This document shows positions 7,581 through 37,004 of a stretch of DNA of 64,000 nucleotides, piece by piece. A program made the translations under genes and the position numbers. The notes under the pieces are model-generated. The model worked only from the letters and a program-made list of their open reading frames with translations, made no database searches and was not told where the DNA came from. Source of the DNA: Planctomycetota bacterium (GTDB taxonomy: Bacteria; Planctomycetota; UBA1135; UBA2386). Location of the stretch: contig JANQJF010000044.1 of the NCBI GenBank assembly GCA_028281765.1, positions 62,001 to 126,000 on the forward strand, written 5' to 3'. How positions within the stretch are numbered: position 1 is the stretch's first letter; every line of letters starts with the position of its first letter.

Positions 7581-8174
7581 TCAACGCAGCGCTGCCGCGG
7601 CAGCGCCGGCGATCGCTTCCAGGCGACGGCGCGTGACTTCGGTCAACGTTCCGTCGCCTTCTGCGTCGTACGCTTCCTCGACTCGAATCCAAACGAGGTC
7701 CGACCGCGCACTGACCACGCGCCGCCACGCGCTCTCTCCGGCGGCTGCGGGTCGCTGCTGCCAGTAGAGCGCGACGCGGATCTCCTCTTCGCGCTGCACG
7801 ACGAGCCGCGTCACCTCACGCCCGGCAACGTCGACGGCCTCGGGCCCTTCGAGGATGTTCCACCCGAGCGCCGTGTAGCAGACCGCCGGGTCGTGGGGCT
7901 CCTCACTGAGCAGCCCTCCGCCCGGGAAGTAGCCGGAATAGACCGACAGCCACGGCGACTCCGCGTCGCCTTCGAAGTAGGAGTAACCCTCCGGTAGCAA
8001 CCCCTCGTCCTCGAAGCGCACCGCCGCCATCTCCACCGGAGCGCACGCCATCGCGACGCCGGACGCGAACGCGTCGACGTCGAACTCGCCGCTCCCGTCG
8101 AGAGATCGGTCACGCCAGACGACGACGTTGGTCGCGACGAGCACGCCGAGCGCGATGTTCGCGGCGCGTTTCAT
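7581..8174 (-). CDS. EpsI-like exosortase-associated protein (DUF3485 type)
   Basis: 197 aa from the ATG at 8174, which overlaps the exosortase stop as ATGA, so translation is coupled. An N-terminal membrane segment (ANIALGVLVATNVVVW) is followed by a soluble domain. The motif HDPAVCYTALGW corresponds to the H-x-P-x-x-C-x-x-x-x-G-W signature of EpsI/DUF3485 proteins, which are encoded next to or fused to exosortases and support processing of sorted proteins. The sequence is short and divergent, so the call rests on the motif plus the position. Its 3' end abuts that of the convergent PEP-CTERM gene. Confidence 0.75.
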   Translation of the reverse strand: MKRAANIALGVLVATNVVVWRDRSLDGSGEFDVDAFASGVAMACAPVEMAAVRFEDEGLLPEGYSYFEGDAESPWLSVYSGYFPGGGLLSEEPHDPAVCYTALGWNILEGPEAVDVAGREVTRLVVQREEEIRVALYWQQRPAAAGESAWRRVVSARSDLVWIRVEEAYDAEGDGTLTEVTRRRLEAIAGAAAAALR

Positions 8175-9013
8175 GCGGGCTCCTCCACGAGCGGCTCGAC
8201 CGGCTCCGAGCACAGCTGGCTGCCGACGAACAGGGCAACCAGAGCGCTGCCCAAGCTCACCATTCCCAGCACCTCGTGCGCGACATCGGACTCCGCGAGC
8301 GGCAGGTCGAAGCGCACGAGAATCGCGCTGATCCACACGCGCAAGAGGCTACCGACGAAGGCGAGCACGATCCCGACGATCGGCAAGAGGGCGGCCTTCC
8401 AGGCGACCACGCGATCCTGCAGACCGACCAGCACGAGCGCGAGCGGCACGAACAGGAGCACGCCGCCGAGCCCGCTGCAGTCGTCGACGACCGCGACGCT
8501 GCCGCCCGTCATGTGCAGCACCGCTCCCTCGATCTCGATCCTGCCGACGAACGGTCCGAGCACGAGCGGCGTCACGAAGACCGTGATCGCGACGAGCGTC
8601 TGGGTCATGGCACCGAGCAGGAACCCGGGGGGCGGCGTGGCCAAGAGCAGCAGTGCGAGCGGGAGTGCCATCGCGCGGAGTGCGGACGACCCGCCGTAGA
8701 GCAGGATCAGCGCGGCGACGATCCCGACCGCACCGAGACCCGCGACGATGCGCACGTCGAACAGCACCGCAGCCGCGTACGCGAGAGCTGCGACCAAGAG
8801 CACCGCAATCCCGACGCCGGCATCTCCCGCGTGACCCTCGTCACGGAACACGTCCCGTCTGCGCCATGCCATCGCGAGTCCCGCGGCGAACGCGAGCGCG
8901 CTCGACGCTGCCACTTTCGACGAACCGGTCCACGTCGCGTACAGGAGCTCGAAGTACGGCACGAGCAGCAGCAGCGCGGCGGTCGCGAGGATCGAGATGC
9001 GGGAGTTCGACAT
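8171..9013 (-). CDS. Exosortase
   Basis: 280 aa with about eight hydrophobic segments. The three catalytic residues of exosortases are visible: Cys179 in VVDDCSGLGG, Arg225 in SLLRVWISAIL and His246 in VAHEVLGMV. It is a membrane cysteine transpeptidase/protease that recognises PEP-CTERM tails. It is shorter than the fused exosortase-EpsI proteins, and here EpsI is the next, overlapping gene. The DUF5916 gene starts 51 nt upstream on the same strand, so a three-gene operon is possible. The subfamily cannot be set by eye. Confidence 0.88.
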   Translation of the reverse strand: MSNSRISILATAALLLLVPYFELLYATWTGSSKVAASSALAFAAGLAMAWRRRDVFRDEGHAGDAGVGIAVLLVAALAYAAAVLFDVRIVAGLGAVGIVAALILLYGGSSALRAMALPLALLLLATPPPGFLLGAMTQTLVAITVFVTPLVLGPFVGRIEIEGAVLHMTGGSVAVVDDCSGLGGVLLFVPLALVLVGLQDRVVAWKAALLPIVGIVLAFVGSLLRVWISAILVRFDLPLAESDVAHEVLGMVSLGSALVALFVGSQLCSEPVEPLVEEPA

Positions 9014-9064
9014 GTGGAGCGGTTCCCCACGCGGTGGATCGGAACTCCGCGGACACCCGCTTCA

Positions 9065-11269
9065 CTAGAACCGGATCGTGTGGGCGAACTTGATCGCCAG
9101 CTCCTGCGCATCCGGGCGGAGGCTCCCATCCTCGCCACGCAACCAACCCGCGGTGACAACGACGAAAAGGTCCGACCCGGGACGGGTGATCCAGCGAGTC
9201 CGGCTCTGCAACCCGAGGTTCCGAGACTGGTTGTCGTACTGGATCAGGTTCTGCACGCTCAGCCACGGCGTGAAGTTGAAGTCGACGTTGCCCTGGGCGA
9301 TGGAGCTCGTGAAGTCCCGACCGAACAGGTCTGCCTTGGTCTGCCTGTACTCGCCGCCGAGGATCAGCAGCGGGCTCGTCCGCCAGGTGAACTCACCGCG
9401 CAGCTCCCAGGCATTGCCGTTGTAGAAGTCGCCGATGACGTTCGAGAGCTCGACGTTGATCGGGCGCGCCTCCGACGTCGAGAAGCTCACCCCGCCGCGC
9501 GTCTCCCAATAATCCCCGGCCGGCACGACGATGTCGTCGAAGATCGTGAACGCGTCGGGAACGCGTTCGAACTCGCGCTCGATGAACGTGCGGAACCGGT
9601 CTTCGTCGTGCGTCGAGAACCCGAACGGCGAGACCTGGAACTCCATGTCCGTGACCTTGTTGCCCTGATCGACGATCAGCTGCATGTCGAGGTCGAACGA
9701 ATAGAAGCGGATCAGGTCGTCGTTCTGCGTGCGCGGATTGAAGTCGATCTCGAGGCTCGTGTCCTTGACGTCACGCCGGCGCACGAAGCCGAGCTCGGGA
9801 TTGAACTCCTCGCCGACCCAGCGCGACTCCGCTTCGACCTCCCACTCCCGCCCCACCGCAACGGCGCGCACGCCGGCCGCGCTGCCGTCCCCGCCAACGC
9901 CGGACGTCTGGCTTCCGATCAGGAACGCCCACAGCCGCAGGTCCATGTCGCCGACGAACTCGGGCTCTCGGTGGAAGAAGTCGACACCCGCCACCTGGTT
10001 CGACCCGCGCTCGGTCGGACGGCCGGTGGTGCCGATCACGCCGACGCGGGTCTCCTCGGCGACCGAGCGGTTGATTCGCACGACCCCGAGCTCCCGGTTG
10101 AAGTCGTTCCCACCGCCCTCCCCGGTGCCGACGATCAGCCCCCCGACCTCCCAGGGCCCCTGTTGCCCCGCGATCTTCGCTCCGGCGAGGATCGGGATCT
10201 GCCCGTCGCCCCCGAGGCCGACCCGGCGGCTGAAGAACGGGACGAAGCTCGAGCTCCGGGGACCGAATTGGAAGCGCGACTCGTCTTCGAGGAAGAAGTC
10301 ACGGCGCTCGCGGAAGAACACCGGGAACCGAGTGAGGTTGATCACGCGATCGTCGTTCTCGGTCTCCGCGAAGTCCGTGAAAAACGTCACCGCGGCGCGC
10401 ATCGACGGGCTCAGTCGGAAGAACACTTCGCCACCCGCATCGGGGTCCGAGGTCCAGCTGTCATCCGTCAGCCGGTTTCGACGCTGACGAAACGCGACGT
10501 AGGGTCGCGCGTCGATGCCGGTACCCTCCTCGACTTCGCCGAAACCGTCGATCTCGCCGAGCTGATCGAGCCGGAAAAACGGTCGGGACTGACTCGCGTT
10601 CGACCAACGGTACTGCTCGTTCGTCCAGCGCCGGATCCGATTGACGTTGAAATTCCACGTCGAGTCGTCGTCCGGGAACGCGATGCTGCGAAACGGGATC
10701 CGCAGTTCGAACTGCCAGCCCGTGTCCGTGACGCGTGAACGTCCGTTCCAGATCGTGTCCCACGACTTGGCGAAGGAGTTGTTGCCGAGCAATCCGTCGC
10801 CGAGGCTGCCTCCGGCGCCGATCTGGAAGAAGTAGCCCTGGTTCTGGTTCTGGAACGTGTCGATCAGGAACTCGACGCGGTCATCGGGGTCGAGGCGGGC
10901 GTCGAACGCGCGCTGCGTCCGACGGATCATGTCCGGGCGATCGTCGAAGCACTGACCCGCGATGTAGAGATAATCGCGATCGTGCGTGATCTGGATCACC
11001 GTCCGCTGCAGGGGCACGACCCCCGCGACAGGCTCGACCTGGATGAGGTCGCCGATCTCCGGCGTCTTGGCCCAGCAAGCATCGTCGAGACGCCCATCCA
11101 GTCGCGGCGCCTCGCTGGAATCGATCCGCCCGATCTTCGCGCGCCGGCCGACCGCCTCGCCGAGAGGCGACGGTTCTTGCGAAATCTGCTGTGGCGCAGC
11201 CGCAATGGCGGCCGCTGCCAAGGTTGCGATCGAGAGCAGCAAGGTGGGGTCCGGAGGGGCGGGCCGCAT
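9065..11269 (-). CDS. DUF5916 outer-membrane protein with CBM9-like N-terminal domain
   Basis: 734 aa. The signal peptide lies in the first 25 residues. Residues about 45-230 look like a family 9 carbohydrate-binding fold (PRLDGRLDDACWAKTPEI, then YLYIAGQCFDD and WQFELRIPFRSIAF). The rest is rich in alternating aromatic strands and ends in FAHTIRF with a terminal Phe, the mark of an outer-membrane beta-barrel. This is the DUF5916 architecture, common in Bacteroidota and planctomycetes and of unknown function, probably glycan related. It lies upstream of the exosortase on the same strand. Confidence 0.82.
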   Translation of the reverse strand: MRPAPPDPTLLLSIATLAAAAIAAAPQQISQEPSPLGEAVGRRAKIGRIDSSEAPRLDGRLDDACWAKTPEIGDLIQVEPVAGVVPLQRTVIQITHDRDYLYIAGQCFDDRPDMIRRTQRAFDARLDPDDRVEFLIDTFQNQNQGYFFQIGAGGSLGDGLLGNNSFAKSWDTIWNGRSRVTDTGWQFELRIPFRSIAFPDDDSTWNFNVNRIRRWTNEQYRWSNASQSRPFFRLDQLGEIDGFGEVEEGTGIDARPYVAFRQRRNRLTDDSWTSDPDAGGEVFFRLSPSMRAAVTFFTDFAETENDDRVINLTRFPVFFRERRDFFLEDESRFQFGPRSSSFVPFFSRRVGLGGDGQIPILAGAKIAGQQGPWEVGGLIVGTGEGGGNDFNRELGVVRINRSVAEETRVGVIGTTGRPTERGSNQVAGVDFFHREPEFVGDMDLRLWAFLIGSQTSGVGGDGSAAGVRAVAVGREWEVEAESRWVGEEFNPELGFVRRRDVKDTSLEIDFNPRTQNDDLIRFYSFDLDMQLIVDQGNKVTDMEFQVSPFGFSTHDEDRFRTFIEREFERVPDAFTIFDDIVVPAGDYWETRGGVSFSTSEARPINVELSNVIGDFYNGNAWELRGEFTWRTSPLLILGGEYRQTKADLFGRDFTSSIAQGNVDFNFTPWLSVQNLIQYDNQSRNLGLQSRTRWITRPGSDLFVVVTAGWLRGEDGSLRPDAQELAIKFAHTIRF

Positions 11270-23622: not shown

Positions 23623-24672
23623 CTAGCCCCCTTCGACCGGGTCGTGATCGACGAGCGGCGCCACGAGGCTGTCCGAGTTGCTGATGATCTTCGTCCCCTC
23701 GAACTCGATCGCGTACGGCAGGCGCTGCATCCCGGCCTGCTGCATGAACTGATTGAGCTCGGCGTGGCGTTGCGGGGCGTAGACGACGAAGAAGCCACCC
23801 CCGCCGGCGCCCGACACCTTGCCTCCGAGCACACCGAATCGTGCCTTGATCTCGTCGTAGAGCGCGTCGATGCCGGGGATCGTGATGCGCGACGACAGCG
23901 CCTTCTTGTGCTCCCAGTGCTCGTCCATGAGACGACCGAAGTCGTCGTAGTTCTCGGTCTCGAGCGCCTCTTTGATCTGGTAGCCGACCTCCTTGATGCC
24001 GTGCAGCGCGGCCTGCACCGCGTCGTGCACTGGCGTCCCGGGATCGCGCATCGCGTGGTCCTGGTCGCGGAGCACGTTCGGCGCGCTGCGGCGCACGCCC
24101 GTGTAGAACAGCATCGTGTTCGACGTGAAGTCCGGCATCGACGTCGGGTTGATCCGGCACGCGGACACTTCGACCGTCCCGTCGGTACCGATCTGCAGCA
24201 GCGTCATGCCGCCGAACGCGGCCATGTACTGGTCCTGCTTGCCGATCCCCTTGTCGAGCAGTCGCAGCTCGATCTCGCACGCCTCCTCGGCGAGCTCCTG
24301 CCGCGAGCAGAGATCCGCGCGGTAGGTGCGCAAGGCGTGCAACAGACCGACGAGATAGCAGCTCGAGGACCCGAGGCCGGTGCCCGCCGGCAGATCCGCG
24401 ATCGAAGAGACCTCCATGCGCGAGAAGATGCCGTGCCGCTTCAGCGCTTCGCGCGCGAGCTCGTGCTGCAGCTCGTCCGGGTGCGAGGCGGTTTCGCTCT
24501 TCGTGTACTGCAGTCGGATCTTGCGATCGACGAGCGGCGTGTTGATCGCGATGTGCATGTACTTGTCGATGCCCATCGCGAGGATGAACCCGCCGTGCTT
24601 CTCGTAGTAGGACGGCAAGTCGGTGCCGCCGCCACCGAGCGTGATGCGGAACGGTGTGCGCGAGACGATCAT
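23623..24672 (-). CDS. GHMP sugar kinase, HddA-like (heptose 7-phosphate 1-kinase type)
   Basis: 349 aa. GHMP signatures are present: RTPFRITLGGGGTDLPSYY at the N-terminus, the ATP loop DLPAGTGLGSSSC near residue 95, and KVSGAGGGGFFVVYAP near 290. The opening and the KQDQYMAAFGGM block match D-glycero-alpha-D-manno-heptose 7-phosphate kinases of the GDP-heptose route. The start overlaps the SIS gene stop as ATGA. Together with the GmhA-like isomerase this points to heptose 1-phosphate synthesis for a surface glycan. No nucleotidyltransferase gene is in the window. Confidence 0.85.
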   Translation of the reverse strand: MIVSRTPFRITLGGGGTDLPSYYEKHGGFILAMGIDKYMHIAINTPLVDRKIRLQYTKSETASHPDELQHELAREALKRHGIFSRMEVSSIADLPAGTGLGSSSCYLVGLLHALRTYRADLCSRQELAEEACEIELRLLDKGIGKQDQYMAAFGGMTLLQIGTDGTVEVSACRINPTSMPDFTSNTMLFYTGVRRSAPNVLRDQDHAMRDPGTPVHDAVQAALHGIKEVGYQIKEALETENYDDFGRLMDEHWEHKKALSSRITIPGIDALYDEIKARFGVLGGKVSGAGGGGFFVVYAPQRHAELNQFMQQAGMQRLPYAIEFEGTKIISNSDSLVAPLVDHDPVEGG

Positions 24673-25307
24673 CGTTCGGAGTTCTCCTGGGGGCGCGGCG
24701 CCGCTTCGGCGCGATGGTCTTCGATGAAGGCACGCAGACGCGCCGTCACGAGGTGGTGCAACACGACGTGCAACCCTTCGACGTGCGGGGTCGCGTCGGA
24801 CGGCACGACGACCGCGACGTCCGCGAGTTCGGCGAGCGGGCCACCGTCGTGCCCCACGAATGCGAGCACCCTGCCGGCGCGCTGTTTCGCGTAGCGGCAG
24901 GCGCGCAGAACGTTCTGGCTCCAGGGACCCGCGCGGTCCGATCCCGCACCGCCGTGCACGGAGATCGCGAACACGACGTCGCCCGGCGAGAACCAGGTTT
25001 CGAGCTGTCGCTCGTAGACCGATTCCCAGCCGAGGTCGTTGGTCAAGGCCGAGAGCAGCGGTCCGTTGTCATTGAGCGACAGCGCGCGCACCGGCGGTGC
25101 GCCGTCGACCCGCGTACACTGAAAGAGATCCGCAGCGAGATGCTGCGCCGTGCCGGCCGATCCACCGTTCCCGAACGTGAACACCGTGTTGCTCCGGCGC
25201 CATGCGCCGCCGAGCTCGTGGACCATGCGCTCGATCGCCGCGCCGTCCAAACGTGCGAGCAGCGCGCGCGAAGTCGCCAGAAAGTCGTCGATCGCGTCCC
25301 GACTCAA
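24669..25307 (-). CDS. gmhA: SIS-domain phosphoheptose isomerase, GmhA-like
   Basis: 212 aa from a TTG start at 25307 that overlaps the HAD gene stop as TTGA; no ATG exists near the conserved N-terminus, and longer frames read into the HAD gene. The core motif FTFGNGGSAGTAQHLAADL matches the GmhA phosphate and active-site loop, with Asp in place of the usual Glu four residues after His. VFAISVHGG and the HVEGLHVVLHHLV end, with its metal-site His residues, also fit. It converts sedoheptulose 7-phosphate to D-glycero-D-manno-heptose 7-phosphate. It is translationally coupled on both sides. Confidence 0.83.
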   Translation of the reverse strand: MSRDAIDDFLATSRALLARLDGAAIERMVHELGGAWRRSNTVFTFGNGGSAGTAQHLAADLFQCTRVDGAPPVRALSLNDNGPLLSALTNDLGWESVYERQLETWFSPGDVVFAISVHGGAGSDRAGPWSQNVLRACRYAKQRAGRVLAFVGHDGGPLAELADVAVVVPSDATPHVEGLHVVLHHLVTARLRAFIEDHRAEAAPRPQENSER

Positions 25308-25801
25308 CGCGCGGCTCCGTAGGCCTCGACGCGCCGCAGCATCGACAGGGCGGCGTCGAGGTCGGGGGCGATCAGGTCGGGCCGGTGGCGCGGCTTCGCG
25401 TGCGGCGCACCGACGAGGATCGAACGCATCCCCGCGCCGCGAGCCATCTCGATCGCATGGACCTCGTCGGCGACGACGTAGGAACGATCGAGATCGAATC
25501 GATGCTCGGCGGCGACATGGCACGCGAGTTCGGATCGCCACAGCCCGGCGCCAGCGGATTCGATGCGCTCGACGGCGTCGATCCGCGCGCCGTTGTCGCC
25601 CAGGTCCGCCCGTAGATCACGCTGGTAGCGATCGAACTGCTGGGGGGTCGCTTCCTCGCTCGGCAGTAGAAGGACGGTAAAGCACCCGGCGCGGTTGAGT
25701 CCGCGCACGAATCGGCTCGCCTGGCGACCGAGAATCGTGCCGCAGGCGGCCAGCAGCAGCCGGTCACCGGCGATCACCATGCCTGGGACGTGCTTCCTCA
25801 C
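25304..25801 (-). CDS. Degenerate GmhB-like HAD-fold protein (probable pseudoenzyme)
   Basis: 165 aa from a GTG at 25801. The layout is that of GmhB/HisB-N HAD phosphatases: an N-terminal strand and loop, a small insert, and the C-terminal block DRSYVVADEVHAIEMARGAG followed by RSILV. The nucleophile motif LDxDGT is replaced by LAACGT, and the usual GDKxxD near the end reads ADEVHA. Both catalytic Asp residues and the metal-binding Asp look lost. Family and operon position say heptose 1,7-bisphosphate phosphatase, but the residues say it cannot hydrolyse phosphate in the usual way. It could be a structural or regulatory partner. It lies 16 nt after the RNase D stop. Confidence 0.65.
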   Translation of the reverse strand: MRKHVPGMVIAGDRLLLAACGTILGRQASRFVRGLNRAGCFTVLLLPSEEATPQQFDRYQRDLRADLGDNGARIDAVERIESAGAGLWRSELACHVAAEHRFDLDRSYVVADEVHAIEMARGAGMRSILVGAPHAKPRHRPDLIAPDLDAALSMLRRVEAYGAAR

Positions 25802-27577: not shown

Positions 27578-28636
27578 ATGAGACCGGCGATGAACGCTCC
27601 ACGCCTCACGCTCGGTCTCTGCGGGCTCGTCAGCATCCTCGCGGGCTGCAGCCACAAGCCGCCGGGGCCGATCGCGACCAGTCCGGACGGCATGGTGGCC
27701 CTGCTGGCATCGGTCGACGGCGGCGCGGACCGCAACGCGGCGCGACACACCGCCGACGAGCTGATCGCGACGCACCGGCGTTTCGACGCGTTGTTCGCCC
27801 ACTCCGACGACCTCGCGTTCGGAGCCGGAGACTTTCTGGGTTCGAACGAGTTGCAGACCCGCGTCGTGAGCATCGGCGCCGCGACGCAGCCGATGCGGGC
27901 CGCGATCGAACGGGGCGACATCCACGGCACCGTCATCGAACCGACCCACGCCTCGGCGGCGCTCGACCTCGCGATCATCGCCGCGACCGGAGGGGCGATC
28001 GAACGCCGCGACCTATCGCTCGGACCGCGCAAGATCTCATCGGAAACGATCCGATTCGACGGCGCCGTGAGTCGCGAACCGGGCGACTCGGAGCTCGAAG
28101 AACTCCGGACGCAACATCACCAGCTGCTCACGACGCCGGGTGACAAGGTGTTCGTCCGCGTCGGTGTCTCGATCGGCGGCGGCAGCAAGGCCTGGCGCGA
28201 GCGCCTGCGTCAGGATCTCGACGTCCTGGCAAGCGAGCACGCCGTCGACGTCGACCTGCAGACCAGAGTCGCGAAGCGAATGCCGATCCAGGCCGGACAA
28301 GTCCGCGAACTCCTCGCACTCGAACTCGACGCGCTGATCCTCGTCCCCTACGACGGCACGAAGGGCGCAGAGCTGGTCGCGTCCGCGAAGGGCACACCCG
28401 TCATCGTGATCGGATCCCCGATTCCGGACTCGAACTACACGTGCAGCGTGTCGACCCGGCCCTACGTGCTTGGCCGCGCCGCAGCCGAACTGTGCCGCGG
28501 CGCGCTCGGTCGTGACGGCGGCCGCGTCGTCGAACTCCTCGGCACGGGCTCGGCCCGCCACGCCGAGGTGAGTCGCGGTTTCCTCGAGACGCTCGGGCTG
28601 CACGAGGCGCTCCAGCCCGCGCAAACGCCGCGCTGA
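27578..28636 (+). CDS. Lipoprotein with periplasmic-binding-protein halves in swapped order
   Basis: 352 aa from the ATG at 27578. The signal ends in LAGC with Cys24, so it is a lipoprotein. Residues 40-140 (RRFDALFAHSDDLAFGAGDFL, RAAIERGDIHGTVIEPTH) resemble the C-terminal half of sugar-binding PBPs, where the text is normally daifahnDdmalGa and dGtiaaTv. Residues 190-345 (FVRVGVSIGGGSKAWRERL, ELDALILVPYDG, GRVVELLGTGSARHAEVSRGF) resemble the N-terminal half, which normally comes first. The order is therefore inverted, as in a circular permutation. The fold should still close, with the linker at about 150-188. It may bind a sugar or signal at the membrane; no ABC genes are adjacent. Confidence 0.72.
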   Translation: MRPAMNAPRLTLGLCGLVSILAGCSHKPPGPIATSPDGMVALLASVDGGADRNAARHTADELIATHRRFDALFAHSDDLAFGAGDFLGSNELQTRVVSIGAATQPMRAAIERGDIHGTVIEPTHASAALDLAIIAATGGAIERRDLSLGPRKISSETIRFDGAVSREPGDSELEELRTQHHQLLTTPGDKVFVRVGVSIGGGSKAWRERLRQDLDVLASEHAVDVDLQTRVAKRMPIQAGQVRELLALELDALILVPYDGTKGAELVASAKGTPVIVIGSPIPDSNYTCSVSTRPYVLGRAAAELCRGALGRDGGRVVELLGTGSARHAEVSRGFLETLGLHEALQPAQTPR

Positions 28637-32005: not shown

Positions 32006-33199
32006 ATGAGATTCCTGAACTCCTCTCTGATCCTCGGCGCCAGCGCCCTCATCGCGTGCCCGTCCCTGCAGGCACAAGGCCCCATCGTCCTCCCGGCCCT
32101 CGCGGACGGCGTCGAAGGCAACGACGGCCAGAACCGCCTCTTCGAAGGCAACTCGTTCCGCGCGCAACAGTGCATCCTCGGCTCGACGATCACGAACGGC
32201 GGCATCGCCGACATCGTGTCGATCGGCTACCGCGCCGACAGCAACTTCAGCACCGGCGCGCCGTCGGGCGCGACGTTCCCGGACGTCGTCATTCGTGTCT
32301 ACACGACGTCGATGACGCCCGAGACCATCGCCGCCGACTTCGACGCCAACGTCGCGGCGTCGACCGAAATCACCACGTCGCCCGTCTACGACTGCACGGA
32401 CGCCGGCAGTGACGCGGATATCACGTTCGTCCCGAACACCGGCTCGGCGCCGGAGCCGTTCAACACGATCACGTTCAACCAGACGACGATCTTCGTGCCG
32501 ACTCCGGCCGAGCCGAACCTCCTGATCGACATCGAGTCGTTCACCGACCCGGGCGTCACGATCAACATCGACGGCGCGCGCGCCGGTGGCCACCACTTCG
32601 AGTTCGGCGCAGCCGGCCCGGTCAGCTGCCCCGACCCGTTCGCCGCCTACCGCCTGCAAGTCAGCGGCAGCAGCCTCCTCGGCAGCCCCGGTGGCAACCG
32701 CGCCGGCATGGCGCCGGGCGACGAGTACCGCATCTTCACTTCGGTCCCGCCGTGCATGCAGAACGCTCTCGGCACCTACTTCCTGACCTTCGGCCCGAGC
32801 AACCCGGCCGGTCTCGACCTCACCCCCGCCGGCGCCCCGGGCAACTTCCTCTACGGCAACCCGGCCATCTTCGTCGCCGTCCCCGGCGTCTGGTCCTTCT
32901 CGCCGATCTCGGGCGCGACGTACGTCTTCGACATCGCCGTGCCGTCGACCACCCCGATCGGCTTCAACTTCCAGGCTCAGGCGGCCCTCGCCGACGCGCC
33001 GGCCAACTCGCTCGGAATCGTGACCTCGAACGCCGTCAACATGTGGATCGGCGACACCGGCCCGAACCACCCGCTCGGCCAGTGCGCGTGCGCGCCGTAC
33101 ATCGGCCCCAACGATGGTGGCAACGGCACGACGTTCGTCCAATACGGCACCTCCGCCGGCATCTGGGGCGGCGCGGTCATCAACATCACCACGCAGTAA
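32006..33199 (+). CDS. Secreted beta-rich protein of unknown function
   Basis: 397 aa from the ATG at 32006. The signal peptide ends at SLQAQ (residue 24). The sequence is rich in Thr, Asn, Gly and beta-strands, has few charged residues and contains a handful of Cys. The N-terminal 230 residues (VPTPAEPNLLIDIESF and HHFEFGAAGPVSC are visible) match no family I recognise. The C-terminal 120 residues (GTYFLTFGPSN through NAVNMWIG) share the pattern seen at the ends of the DNRLRE and FG-GAP proteins. It is probably a surface or matrix protein. A strong double hairpin follows. Confidence 0.65.
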   Translation: MRFLNSSLILGASALIACPSLQAQGPIVLPALADGVEGNDGQNRLFEGNSFRAQQCILGSTITNGGIADIVSIGYRADSNFSTGAPSGATFPDVVIRVYTTSMTPETIAADFDANVAASTEITTSPVYDCTDAGSDADITFVPNTGSAPEPFNTITFNQTTIFVPTPAEPNLLIDIESFTDPGVTINIDGARAGGHHFEFGAAGPVSCPDPFAAYRLQVSGSSLLGSPGGNRAGMAPGDEYRIFTSVPPCMQNALGTYFLTFGPSNPAGLDLTPAGAPGNFLYGNPAIFVAVPGVWSFSPISGATYVFDIAVPSTTPIGFNFQAQAALADAPANSLGIVTSNAVNMWIGDTGPNHPLGQCACAPYIGPNDGGNGTTFVQYGTSAGIWGGAVINITTQ

Positions 33200-33212
33200 G
33201 TGCGCGGACAGC

Positions 33213-33271
33213 TCTCTCGTCTTCGGACGAGAGCCGAACGGCCTCCGACTCCTCGAGTCGGAGGCCGTTTT
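33213..33271 (+). terminator. Tandem hairpins ending the 32006 gene
   Basis: First an 8-bp stem CTCTCGTC closed by a TTCG tetraloop (33213-33232). Then a 14-bp stem AACGGCCTCCGACT / AGTCGGAGGCCGTT (33237-33269) followed by TTCGTT. The second is a good intrinsic terminator. Confidence 0.75.
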
Positions 33272-33278
33272 CGTTCGC

Positions 33279-33284
33279 TATGAT
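33279..33284 (+). promoter_or_regulatory. Candidate -10 of the first two-repeat gene
   Basis: TATGAT 33 nt before the TTG start at 33318. It sits directly behind the preceding terminator. A GGAG ribosome-binding site (33308-33311) follows. Confidence 0.45.
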
Positions 33285-33317
33285 GCCGGCGCTCTCTTCT
33301 CGCCGCCGGAGAACGAC

Positions 33318-35084
33318 TTGTTCCGCACCGCTCGCGCCCTCGCCGTCCTGACTATCACCGCCAGCCTCGGCGCCCAGTCGTCCGTTCCGATTCCGCTCGA
33401 CTACAACTTCAACGGCATCGTGCACGCGGGTGAAGCCGGCCAGCCGGACGCTCCGAACGGCTTCCGCTCGATTTCCGATCGCGCGCTCGACTTCTCGAGC
33501 GGCGTCCCAAACGAAGCGCTGCTCAACGGCTACGAACTCGTCGGCACCGCGAACACGCTCGACATCGTCCATCTCGGCAACCGCAACACGGTCGACTTCG
33601 GCAACCGGCCGTTCGACGCCAGCCCGGACGGCGACGACTTCGGCACGCAGCCTGCATGGCTCGCGAACGCGGACCAATCGAGCCCACAGACGACCGACCT
33701 CGCCGCCAGCGGCAATTCGATCGCGCTCGGCGCGGCGGCATCCGCGTCGTTCCTCTACCAGATCAGCAACGGCGGCGGCTCGTTCGACGTCACGATCGGC
33801 TTCCTCGGCGGCGGCTCGCACAGCGAGACACTCTCGGGCCCCGACTGGTTCGGTGGCGCCTACGCCGCGAGGAGCTCGACCGACATCGCGACTCCCGGCC
33901 CGAACCTGTCGGTGACCGAAGGCGTGATCGATCTCTCGGCCTACGCCGGTCAGGTGATCGAGTCGATCTCGTTCGACAACGGGTCGAATCCGAATGCGGG
34001 GTACGCGATCCTCGCCGGCCGCGTCGACTCGGATGCGGTTCCGGCTCCCGAGGTCCCGATCCCGCTCAACTACAACTTCAACGGCATCGTCCACGCCGGC
34101 GAAGACGGCAACCCGAACGATCCGAACGGCTTCCGCTCGATCTCCGACCGGGCGCTCGACTTCCGCGGCGGTGTGCCGAGCGACGCCGTGCTCGATCGAT
34201 ACGAGCTCGTGGACACGCCCGGCGCGCTCGACATCGTCCACCTCGGCAACCGCAACCTCGTGGACTTCGGCAATCGCCCGTTCGACACCGTCGTCGACAA
34301 CGACGACTTCGGCGTCCAGCCGGCGTGGCTCCAGTTCCCGGACCAGGCGCTCCCGCAGGTGACGTCGACGAAGGACTCACGCGTCGCGCTGGTCGCGAAC
34401 TCCGAGGCATCCCTGCTGTTCCAGATCAGCAACGGCGGCGGCGGGTTCGACGTGACGTTCGCCTTCCTCAGCGGCAACGCCCTCACCCAGGCCGTGTCCG
34501 GTCCCGACTGGTTCGGTGGCTCCTACGCCGGGATGGACTCGACGGACGACGCATCGCCGGGTGCGAACCTGCGGATCACCGAACGCACGATCGATCTCAG
34601 CGCGTACGCCGGCGAAGTGCTCGACGCCGTGTTCTTCTGGAATCGCACCAACTCGATCGGCGGCTACGCGATCCTCGCCGTCAACGTCCGCGGGTGCGCG
34701 TCACCGGCCTCGATCACGAATCTCGGCGGCGGCAACGGCCCGACGGTCTCGACGAGCTCGGCGACGATCGGGTCGCTGTTCGAGTTCACGGTGAATGGCG
34801 CCGGGCCCCTCGCCAGCGGCACCGTACTCGGCGGGTCGGTCGCCAACGCGCTTCCGTTGTCGCTGGTCTTCCCCGCGTGTGCGGGCGACCTCGTCGTGTC
34901 GAGTCCGGACCTCGGAGTCGCAGCGAGTCCGGACGCCTCCGGCAGCTACACGCTGATGCTCATGACGCCCGCGGACCCGGGACTGTGCGGCGCGAGCTAC
35001 CACTTCCAATACGGGGAGATTGCGATCGGACCGCCGTGCCCGATCGTCATGAGCGACGCGGTGCGCGTGACGTTCGGCTACTGA
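33318..35084 (+). CDS. Secreted two-repeat protein, paralogue 1
   Basis: 588 aa from a TTG at 33318, chosen because it directly precedes a signal peptide ending ITASLGAQ and has GGAG 6 nt upstream. Two copies of a 215-residue domain occupy about 24-240 and 248-465; each starts YNFNGIVHAGE and runs through GFRSISDRALDF, LDIVHLGNRN, FQISNGGG/YQISNGGG, GPDWFGG and GYAILA. The last 120 residues are a separate beta domain ending in a VTFGY tail. The domain looks like a lectin-type beta-sandwich but matches no family I recognise. It is followed by a close paralogue. Confidence 0.7.
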   Translation: MFRTARALAVLTITASLGAQSSVPIPLDYNFNGIVHAGEAGQPDAPNGFRSISDRALDFSSGVPNEALLNGYELVGTANTLDIVHLGNRNTVDFGNRPFDASPDGDDFGTQPAWLANADQSSPQTTDLAASGNSIALGAAASASFLYQISNGGGSFDVTIGFLGGGSHSETLSGPDWFGGAYAARSSTDIATPGPNLSVTEGVIDLSAYAGQVIESISFDNGSNPNAGYAILAGRVDSDAVPAPEVPIPLNYNFNGIVHAGEDGNPNDPNGFRSISDRALDFRGGVPSDAVLDRYELVDTPGALDIVHLGNRNLVDFGNRPFDTVVDNDDFGVQPAWLQFPDQALPQVTSTKDSRVALVANSEASLLFQISNGGGGFDVTFAFLSGNALTQAVSGPDWFGGSYAGMDSTDDASPGANLRITERTIDLSAYAGEVLDAVFFWNRTNSIGGYAILAVNVRGCASPASITNLGGGNGPTVSTSSATIGSLFEFTVNGAGPLASGTVLGGSVANALPLSLVFPACAGDLVVSSPDLGVAASPDASGSYTLMLMTPADPGLCGASYHFQYGEIAIGPPCPIVMSDAVRVTFGY

Positions 35085-35175
35085 CGCGTTCGGCTCGGTA
35101 GACCGAATCCGCTGTATCAAGTCCTCCGTGCGGCAAACCCGAGAGATCGTACCCCCCCACGAGGCGAGTCGCGAC

Positions 35176-35181
35176 TAGCAT
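35176..35181 (+). promoter_or_regulatory. Candidate -10 of the second two-repeat gene
   Basis: TAGCAT 44 nt before the ATG at 35226, with a GGAG at 35211-35214 in between. It suggests that each paralogue has its own promoter. Confidence 0.35.
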
Positions 35182-35225
35182 GCAGGGCGGACAGTTTCCC
35201 CCCCGAAACCCGGAGACCCCTCGTT

Positions 35226-37004
35226 ATGGCTCATCCTCGCTTCGTTCCGTCCGTTGTCTGCACCGCCGCCGCACTCGCCACACTCGGGGCCGCGCAGACG
35301 AGCACGCAGATCGTGCTCGACTACAACTTCAATGGCATCGTCCACAACGGCGAAGCCGGCCTGCCCGACGACGCGAACGGCTTCCGTTCGATCTCGGACC
35401 GCGCCCTGGACTTCACCGGAGGCGTGCCGAGCGACTCGCTGTTGAACGGATACCAGCTCGAAGGCACCGCGGGCGTGCTCGACATCGTGCACCTCGGCAA
35501 CCGCAACACCGTCGACTTTGGCAACCGTGCGTTCGACGCAGCTCCGGACGGCGACGACATCGGCATCCAGCCCGCTTGGCTCGCGAACCCCGATCAGTCG
35601 ACCGCACAGACGAGCGACCTGCTGCTCGCCGGCTACCCGATCGGCATCGACGCGCCGGCGACGGCCTCGTTCCTCTACCAGATCAGCAACGGCGGCGGCA
35701 CGTTCGACGTCGTCTTCGACTTCGTCGGCGGCGTTCAGTTCACCGCCACGCTGTCCGGCCCCGACTGGTTCGGCGGCGCCTACGCCGGCACAGGCGGCAC
35801 CGACACGGGCAACATCGACGCGAACCTCTCCATCACCGAAGGCACGGTCGACCTGTCGGCGTTCGTCGGGGAAGTTCTCGAGAAGGTCACGTTCCAGAAC
35901 CCGTCCAACGTCAACGCCGGCTACGCGATCCTCGCAGGTCGCGTCGACACGGAGCCGGAGCCCGCGCCGTTCTTCCCGGTGCCGCTGGCCTACAACTTCA
36001 ACGGCATCGTGCACACGGGAGAAGAAGGCGCCCCCGACAATCCGAACGGCTTCCGCTCGATTTCGGACCGCGCGCTCGACTTCCGCACCGGCGTGCCGAG
36101 TGACGCCACGCTCGACAAGTATTCGATCGTCGACGCCGCGGGCGCTCTCGACATCGTGCACCTCGGCAACCGCAACACGGTCGACTCCGGCAATCGCGTC
36201 TTCGACGCGGCTGCGGACGGCGACTTCATCGGCATCCAGCCGAACTGGCTCCCGGCCGTCGACCAGACCGGCCCGCAGGTCTCGCCGCTCACGACTCCGA
36301 TCGCGCTCGTCGGCAACTCCGAAGCGTCGATCATCTTCCAGATCAGCAACGGCGGTGGTTCCTTCGACGTGACGCTCGCGTTCCAGAGCGGTGGAGCCCA
36401 GACGGAGACCATCTCGGGCGGCGACTGGTTCGGCGGCGTGTACGCCGGCACGGACGCCACCGACTTCGGCAATTTCGGCGCCAACCTCTCGATCACGGAG
36501 CGCACGATCGACCTTGGCGCGAACGCGGGCGAACTCGTCACGGCCGTGATCTTCTCGAACCAGTCGAACGGCAACGCGGGATACGCGATCCTCGCGATGA
36601 ACATCTCGGGCTGCGACACCGCGGGCTCGGCGCAGAACATCGGCGGCGGCAACGGCCCGACGATCTCGACGACGGCCACGGGTCAACTCGGTGCCGCGGT
36701 CGACGTCTCGATCGCGGGCGCGGGCTCGAGCGCGATCGGCACCATGCTGGTCGGCGTGACGGCCGTGCCGGTCCCGCTGAACCTCGTCTTCCCGGCGTGC
36801 GCCGGTGACCTGGTCGTGTCCTCGCCGATCGTAGGCATCCCGGCGAACCCGGACGCCAGCGGCAACTACACGCTGAATCTCACCGGTCCGTCGGATCCGG
36901 GCTTCTGCGGCAACACGTTCTACTTCCAGTACGGCGAGATCGCGATCGGACCCGCGTGCCCGATCGTCGTCAGCGACACGCTCGGGATCACGTTCGGGTA
37001 CTGA
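35226..37004 (+). CDS. Secreted two-repeat protein, paralogue 2
   Basis: 592 aa, the same architecture as the product at 33318: a signal peptide ending TLGAAQ, repeat domains at about 28-245 and 252-470, and a C-terminal domain ending in an ITFGY tail. Many blocks are identical, including DGDDIGIQPAWLANPDQ against DGDDFGTQPAWLANADQ. Four copies of the domain thus lie in 3.7 kb, and gene duplication is evident. The most divergent parts are the strands after QISNGGG, which may form the ligand face. The function is unknown; a surface adhesin or glycan binder is a guess. Confidence 0.7.
   Translation: MAHPRFVPSVVCTAAALATLGAAQTSTQIVLDYNFNGIVHNGEAGLPDDANGFRSISDRALDFTGGVPSDSLLNGYQLEGTAGVLDIVHLGNRNTVDFGNRAFDAAPDGDDIGIQPAWLANPDQSTAQTSDLLLAGYPIGIDAPATASFLYQISNGGGTFDVVFDFVGGVQFTATLSGPDWFGGAYAGTGGTDTGNIDANLSITEGTVDLSAFVGEVLEKVTFQNPSNVNAGYAILAGRVDTEPEPAPFFPVPLAYNFNGIVHTGEEGAPDNPNGFRSISDRALDFRTGVPSDATLDKYSIVDAAGALDIVHLGNRNTVDSGNRVFDAAADGDFIGIQPNWLPAVDQTGPQVSPLTTPIALVGNSEASIIFQISNGGGSFDVTLAFQSGGAQTETISGGDWFGGVYAGTDATDFGNFGANLSITERTIDLGANAGELVTAVIFSNQSNGNAGYAILAMNISGCDTAGSAQNIGGGNGPTISTTATGQLGAAVDVSIAGAGSSAIGTMLVGVTAVPVPLNLVFPACAGDLVVSSPIVGIPANPDASGNYTLNLTGPSDPGFCGNTFYFQYGEIAIGPACPIVVSDTLGITFGY

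What the first reader, a model, noticed from the sequence alone, without database searches (positions are those of the whole stretch)
27578..28636. Circularly permuted periplasmic-binding-protein lipoprotein
In the sequence the first half (residues 40-140) reads like the C-terminal half of sugar-binding PBPs (FDALFAHSDDLAFGAGDFL, IERGDIHGTVIEPTHA). The second half (190-345) reads like the N-terminal half (FVRVGVSIGGGSKAWRERLR, ALILVPYDG, VVELLGTGSARHAEVSRGF). PBPs normally run in the other order. A duplication followed by loss of the outer halves would give this. With a lipobox and no transporter nearby it may be a membrane-bound sensor or scavenger.
Basis: partly seen in the sequence, partly recalled or inferred. 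Interest (0 to 1): 0.75.

Follow-up and report, generated by a model that had tools for sequence, protein, structure and literature searches.

The report
Circularly permuted, transporter-less sugar-binding lipoprotein
A bacterial sugar-binding protein has been cut and rejoined so that its back half comes first; the rearrangement arose once in one planctomycete family, and later descendants, including this one, lost the sugar transporter and the sugar-contacting residues but kept the protein.

Summary
Window 27578-28636 (+) encodes a 352-residue lipoprotein (lipobox LAGC). Its first half matches the C-terminal part of Pfam Peripla_BP_4 and its second half the N-terminal part, in reversed order. 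AlphaFold gives a confident type I binding-protein fold (pLDDT 89, pTM 0.85). It is not a local artefact: 23 of 34 genomes of the same family carry the same order, while 96 single-copy relatives elsewhere have normal order. The permuted proteins form one side of a branch (SH-aLRT 99). Early-branching members sit next to a CUT2 permease and keep every checked sugar-contact residue. Later ones, the window included, lost the permease, and most pocket residues changed. The window genome (88.8% complete) shows no CUT2 permease, CUT2 ATPase or second Peripla_BP_4 protein. In these descendants the linker made by the permutation is among the best-conserved stretches, suggesting reuse as a non-transport lipoprotein; that step is inferred. 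Natural permuted binding proteins are already known: Treponema Tp0684, and PDB 5er3 from Rhodopirellula baltica, with the same order as ours. This is a new, apparently independent case of a known kind.

The parts
27578..28636 (+). Gene for the permuted Peripla_BP_4-type lipoprotein (352 aa plus stop)
   Evidence: G+C by codon position 0.72/0.51/0.85
27578..27649 (+). Signal peptide with lipobox LAGC; Cys24 is the predicted lipid anchor
   Evidence: this Cys is present in all 15 derived and 4 basal permuted proteins compared
27689..28063 (+). C-terminal half of the binding protein, placed first
   Evidence: family C-half HMM 144 bits; Pfam profile positions 165-253
28064..28144 (+). Linker joining the old C-terminus to the old N-terminus (residues ~163-189; helix 168-179; PGD..L..LR.QH...LTT.P)
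   Evidence: structure model; mean conservation 0.64 versus 0.45 elsewhere in permease-less members
28145..28609 (+). N-terminal half of the binding protein, placed last
   Evidence: family N-half HMM 169 bits; Pfam profile positions 1-147

Best explanation
A lipid-anchored type I solute-binding protein whose halves are circularly permuted. SHOWN by sequence: the permutation; its presence in 23 genomes of one planctomycete family; that the permuted proteins fall on one side of a branch from normal-order CUT2 binding proteins; permease next to the gene, with intact pocket, in four early-branching genomes; absence of that permease and loss of most pocket residues in later ones, including the window's. 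INFERRED: the permutation arose in a working CUT2 sugar-binding protein by tandem duplication and loss of the outer halves, moving the lipid anchor from the N-lobe to the C-lobe. After the transporter was lost, the protein was kept for a non-transport role (binding, adaptor or sensor component) in which the new linker and the adjoining end of the C-half matter more than the sugar pocket.
For: Reversed Pfam order. Confident models of the window protein (pLDDT 89.0, pTM 0.85) and a basal relative (93.8, 0.88). Foldseek aligns ordinary binding proteins mostly over about 150 columns, one half, but the permuted structure 5er3 over full length. CH-NH order in 23 family genomes and in only 5 of 107 ORFs scanned in the wider collections, all five from that family. 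Tree: permuted rows one side of a branch, 99. Permease beside G008, G009, G017, G018 only. Pocket E W R D R R W N D in those four and in nearly all normal relatives (W or Y at the second place), K W R G S V A S G in the window. No PF02653 permease in G000, G012, G013 with positive controls, and no CUT2 ATPase. Linker conservation 0.64 vs 0.45 in permease-less members.
Against: No experiment. The window genome is 88.8% complete, so a missing transporter could be a gap, although G012 and G013 (93-94%) agree. The window protein and G016 sit on long branches, so their exact place is uncertain. No partner protein was identified, so the non-transport role rests on loss of pocket and transporter plus retained intact genes. 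G016, the nearest relative, keeps few of the conserved linker residues.
Confidence: 0.6

Rival explanations
1. It is still a solute-binding protein for uptake, with altered specificity, feeding a transporter of another type or an unassembled CUT2 system.
For: The bilobal fold is intact and confidently predicted; the gene is intact and has a lipobox; 11% of the genome may be missing.
Against: No CUT2 permease or ATPase in the window genome, nor in G012 and G013. Most checked pocket positions changed. The gene is not in an operon with any transporter.
Confidence: 0.2
2. A decaying relic of the lost transporter, drifting towards a pseudogene.
For: Fast evolution in permease-less members (long branches) and trimming of the C-half in several.
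Against: Intact reading frames with lipobox persist across deeply diverged genera, and conservation is concentrated in the linker and residues ~116-144 rather than lost evenly.
Confidence: 0.12
3. A ligand-sensing lipoprotein docking onto a membrane kinase or similar receptor (LuxP- or TorT-like).
For: Best solved match by profile is the fructose-binding domain of the hybrid sensor BT1754 (2x7x); orphan binding proteins of this fold are known to serve kinases (general knowledge, not tested).
Against: No kinase gene was recognised beside it in the window or among the genes read in relatives; the usual neighbours are DUF6687 and an EamA-type transporter.
Confidence: 0.15
4. An artefact: two unrelated binding-protein fragments joined by misassembly.
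For: The window genome is a fragmented assembly.
Against: Same order, same junction and a lipobox in 23 independent assemblies, 21-32% identical to the window protein.
Confidence: 0.01

Closest known systems
PDB 5er3, solute-binding protein of Rhodopirellula baltica (crystal structure, 2015)
   Same: The only solved structure matching the models closely over full length in sequence order (E 6.8e-18 and 8.1e-20); N-half at chain residues ~200-330, so a similar cut site; also a planctomycete.
   Different: Its N-half is 49-54% identical to a different, normal-order subfamily and only about 27% to the permuted family here, so its permutation looks independent. Only part of its sequence could be read.
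Tp0684 (TpMglB-2), 'Type Ic / Cluster Bc' glucose-binding lipoprotein of Treponema pallidum (PMC4990184)
   Same: Natural, circularly permuted, lipid-anchored type I binding protein; same general idea.
   Different: Cut within the N-lobe so that only its first three strands move to the end; ours is cut in the C-lobe and moves about 150 residues. Tp0684 binds glucose and lies with transporter genes; the window protein has no CUT2 transporter and a changed pocket.
Normal-order CUT2 binding proteins (G123, G126, G127; Kribbella, Polyangia and others) and BT1754 sensor domain (2x7x)
   Same: Same subfamily by sequence; both halves present; pocket pattern shared with basal permuted members.
   Different: Halves in normal order; most have ATPase and permease neighbours.
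Engineered permuted lobes of T. maritima ribose-binding protein (PMC9815098)
   Same: Shows that the fold tolerates new termini.
   Different: Designed single lobes, not a natural full-length protein.

Membership tests
Peripla_BP_4 (PF13407), type I solute-binding protein | Sequence match above the curated cut-off | tested here: met
   72.9 bits against 35.1
Peripla_BP_4 (PF13407), type I solute-binding protein | Halves in the canonical N-then-C order | tested here: not met
   Profile 165-253 precedes 1-147
Peripla_BP_4 (PF13407), type I solute-binding protein | Two-lobed fold | tested here: met
   AlphaFold pLDDT 89, pTM 0.85; full-length Foldseek match to 5er3
CUT2 sugar-transporter binding protein | CUT2 permease and ATPase partner | tested here: not met
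   No PF02653 and no CUT2 ATPase in G000; controls positive; genome 88.8% complete
CUT2 sugar-transporter binding protein | Conserved sugar-contact residues | tested here: not met
   K W R G S V A S G versus E W R D R R W N D
CUT2 sugar-transporter binding protein | Binds a sugar | not testable with these tools
   needs a binding assay
Type Ic / Cluster Bc (Tp0684-like) | Circularly permuted type I topology | tested here: met
Type Ic / Cluster Bc (Tp0684-like) | First three N-lobe strands moved to the C-terminus | tested here: not met
   Here the first ~147 profile positions are moved; Tp0684 structures match the basal model only at TMq 0.40-0.42
5er3-like permuted protein | Same order of halves and similar cut site | tested here: met
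   Full-length sequential Foldseek match, N-half at chain 200-330
5er3-like permuted protein | Common origin of the permutation | tested here: inconclusive
   5er3 N-half fragment is 49-54% identical to normal-order proteins and ~27% to ours, which argues against; full sequence not available

The most novel reading that the evidence does not exclude
After a circular permutation created a new linker in a sugar-binding protein, the lineage lost its transporter and sugar site but kept the protein because the new linker and adjoining surface had become a binding site: a new function built on the joint of a permutation.
Probability: 0.3. Interest if true: 0.72.

Novelty: new variant of a known kind. 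Interest (0 to 1): 0.55.

Why it matters
Natural circular permutations of solute-binding proteins are rarely documented. This one comes with an ordered series: normal-order relatives in other families of the same order, permuted proteins still beside a permease with an intact pocket, and permuted orphans with changed pockets. It lets one ask whether permutation itself is neutral for transport, what moving the lipid anchor to the other lobe does, and how a binding protein is reused. Together with Tp0684 and 5er3 it suggests the rearrangement has happened several times.

Tried and rejected
A genome-contig scan with the window protein alone found no relative; a tight alignment of basal members worked. 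Remnants of lost halves beside the gene: none. Pirellulaceae-like genomes as a source of 5er3 kin: all relatives found were normal order. DUF6687 as the window's partner: no match in G000, but that search had no positive control. Local files of the genome were not available. Misassembly rejected, because 23 assemblies agree. Literature for DUF6687: none in the library.

Full report
OBSERVATION. Pfam gives a single family, Peripla_BP_4 (E 4e-20). Profile positions 1-147 lie on residues 195-339, and the front fragment alone matches positions 165-253. The same split appears against NCBIfam and PDB sequences and in the own-genome family search. The two parts abut in normal-order relatives, so the order is circularly permuted, cut between the helix ending the first ~150 residues and the following strand of the C-lobe. 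The gene is single copy in its genome.

NOT AN ARTEFACT. Of 34 genomes of the same family, 17 gave hits with the single protein and 23 show C-half before N-half with halves tested by separate HMMs. Those with a complete 5' end have their own lipobox. Identity to the window protein is 21-32%. In an HMM scan of ORFs from the named genome collection and from other genomes of the phylum, 5 were C-N (all Planctomycetota or unnamed MAGs that correspond to this family), 96 were N-C and 6 were N-C-N-C; some loci overlap, so counts are of ORF records. The class searched equals the order; there and in a 392-genome sample of the phylum, permuted forms were seen only in this family.

FOLD. AlphaFold with an alignment of permuted proteins plus unpaired halves of normal ones gives pLDDT 89.0 and pTM 0.85 for the window protein, and 93.8 and 0.88 for a basal relative. 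No templates were used. Foldseek aligns ordinary ribose-type proteins mostly over about 150 columns, i.e. one half, as expected for a sequential aligner. It aligns 5er3 over 318-325 columns.

HISTORY. With halves re-ordered, the 20 permuted proteins tested form one side of a branch with SH-aLRT 99. Seen from the normal-order side, the branching order is G008, then G017/G018, G009, G033, then the rest including the window. The root was placed for drawing only, and long branches are present. Normal relatives in other families of the order (G123, G126, G127) lie beside a permease, in G127 also an ATPase. Beside the permuted gene a CUT2 permease is found only in G008, G009, G017 and G018, which fits one loss afterwards. 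Instead of an ATPase, the gene ahead is usually DUF6687 (18 of 23 loci), and an EamA-type transporter often follows. CUT2 ATPases exist elsewhere in the four permease-bearing genomes.

POCKET. At nine RbsB ligand positions (numbering recalled, identities checked in the script), nearly all normal relatives and the four permease-bearing permuted proteins read E W/Y R D R R W N D. G033 is partly changed. The window reads K W R G S V A S G. A tenth RbsB position (Q235) fell in a gap for the relatives and was not compared. G000, G012 and G013 have no PF02653 permease and no CUT2 ATPase at E 1e-40.

WHAT IS STILL SELECTED. Among 15 permease-less members the linker 168-191 has mean top-residue fraction 0.64 against 0.45 elsewhere; no random set of 24 columns out of 20,000 reached it. 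Only residues about 116-144 are comparably conserved. In the four basal members the linker is instead the least conserved region. This shift suggests that linker and adjoining surface gained a role. The inference is mine; it is weaker for the G000/G016 pair, where G016 retains few linker residues.

HOW IT MAY HAVE ARISEN. Tandem duplication, fusion and loss of the outer halves would give this order. Six Bacillaceae ORFs of about 640 residues are fused tandems, so the intermediate is feasible, but none was seen in this lineage. The linker is about as long as a signal peptide plus spacer, which fits but proves nothing.

KNOWN CASES. Tp0684 of Treponema pallidum is a natural permuted glucose-binding lipoprotein with a different cut site, proposed as Type Ic (PMC4990184). 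5er3 of R. baltica has the same order as here. Its readable N-half fragment is 49-54% identical to normal-order proteins of another subfamily and about 27% to ours, so it is probably an independent event. The window protein is thus a new variant of a known kind.

LIMITS. Function is inferred. Genome completeness is 88.8%. The tree was a quick search with long branches.

Noticed in passing
L099, L101, L102, L109, L115, L146 (ORF at about 7850-9800; L115 at about 920-2810): Bacillaceae ORFs of ~640 aa carrying two complete Peripla_BP_4 proteins in tandem (N-C-N-C), mostly beside CUT2 ATPase and permease genes.
   Followed up: partly
PDB 5er3 (outside the window): A solved planctomycete binding protein whose permuted topology is not mentioned in its title; it appears to be an independent permutation with nearly the same cut site.
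   Followed up: partly
L019-L021, L023-L030, L032, L069-L071, L073-L075: DUF6687 (PF20392) is the usual gene directly upstream of the permuted protein, or of the permease before it; an EamA-type transporter often follows.
   Followed up: partly
L067 (2833-3807), L068 (7183-8160): Normal-order relatives in another family of the order with altered pockets and no permease or ATPase hit nearby: a parallel orphan without permutation.
   Followed up: partly
window 33114-37004: Two neighbouring genes share repeated modules (PIPLNYNFNGIVHAGE...NGFRSISDRALDF).
   Followed up: no
window 23623-25801: Minus-strand genes that read like a sugar kinase, an isomerase (SIS) and a phosphatase, perhaps heptose synthesis for lipopolysaccharide; judged by eye only.
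   Followed up: no
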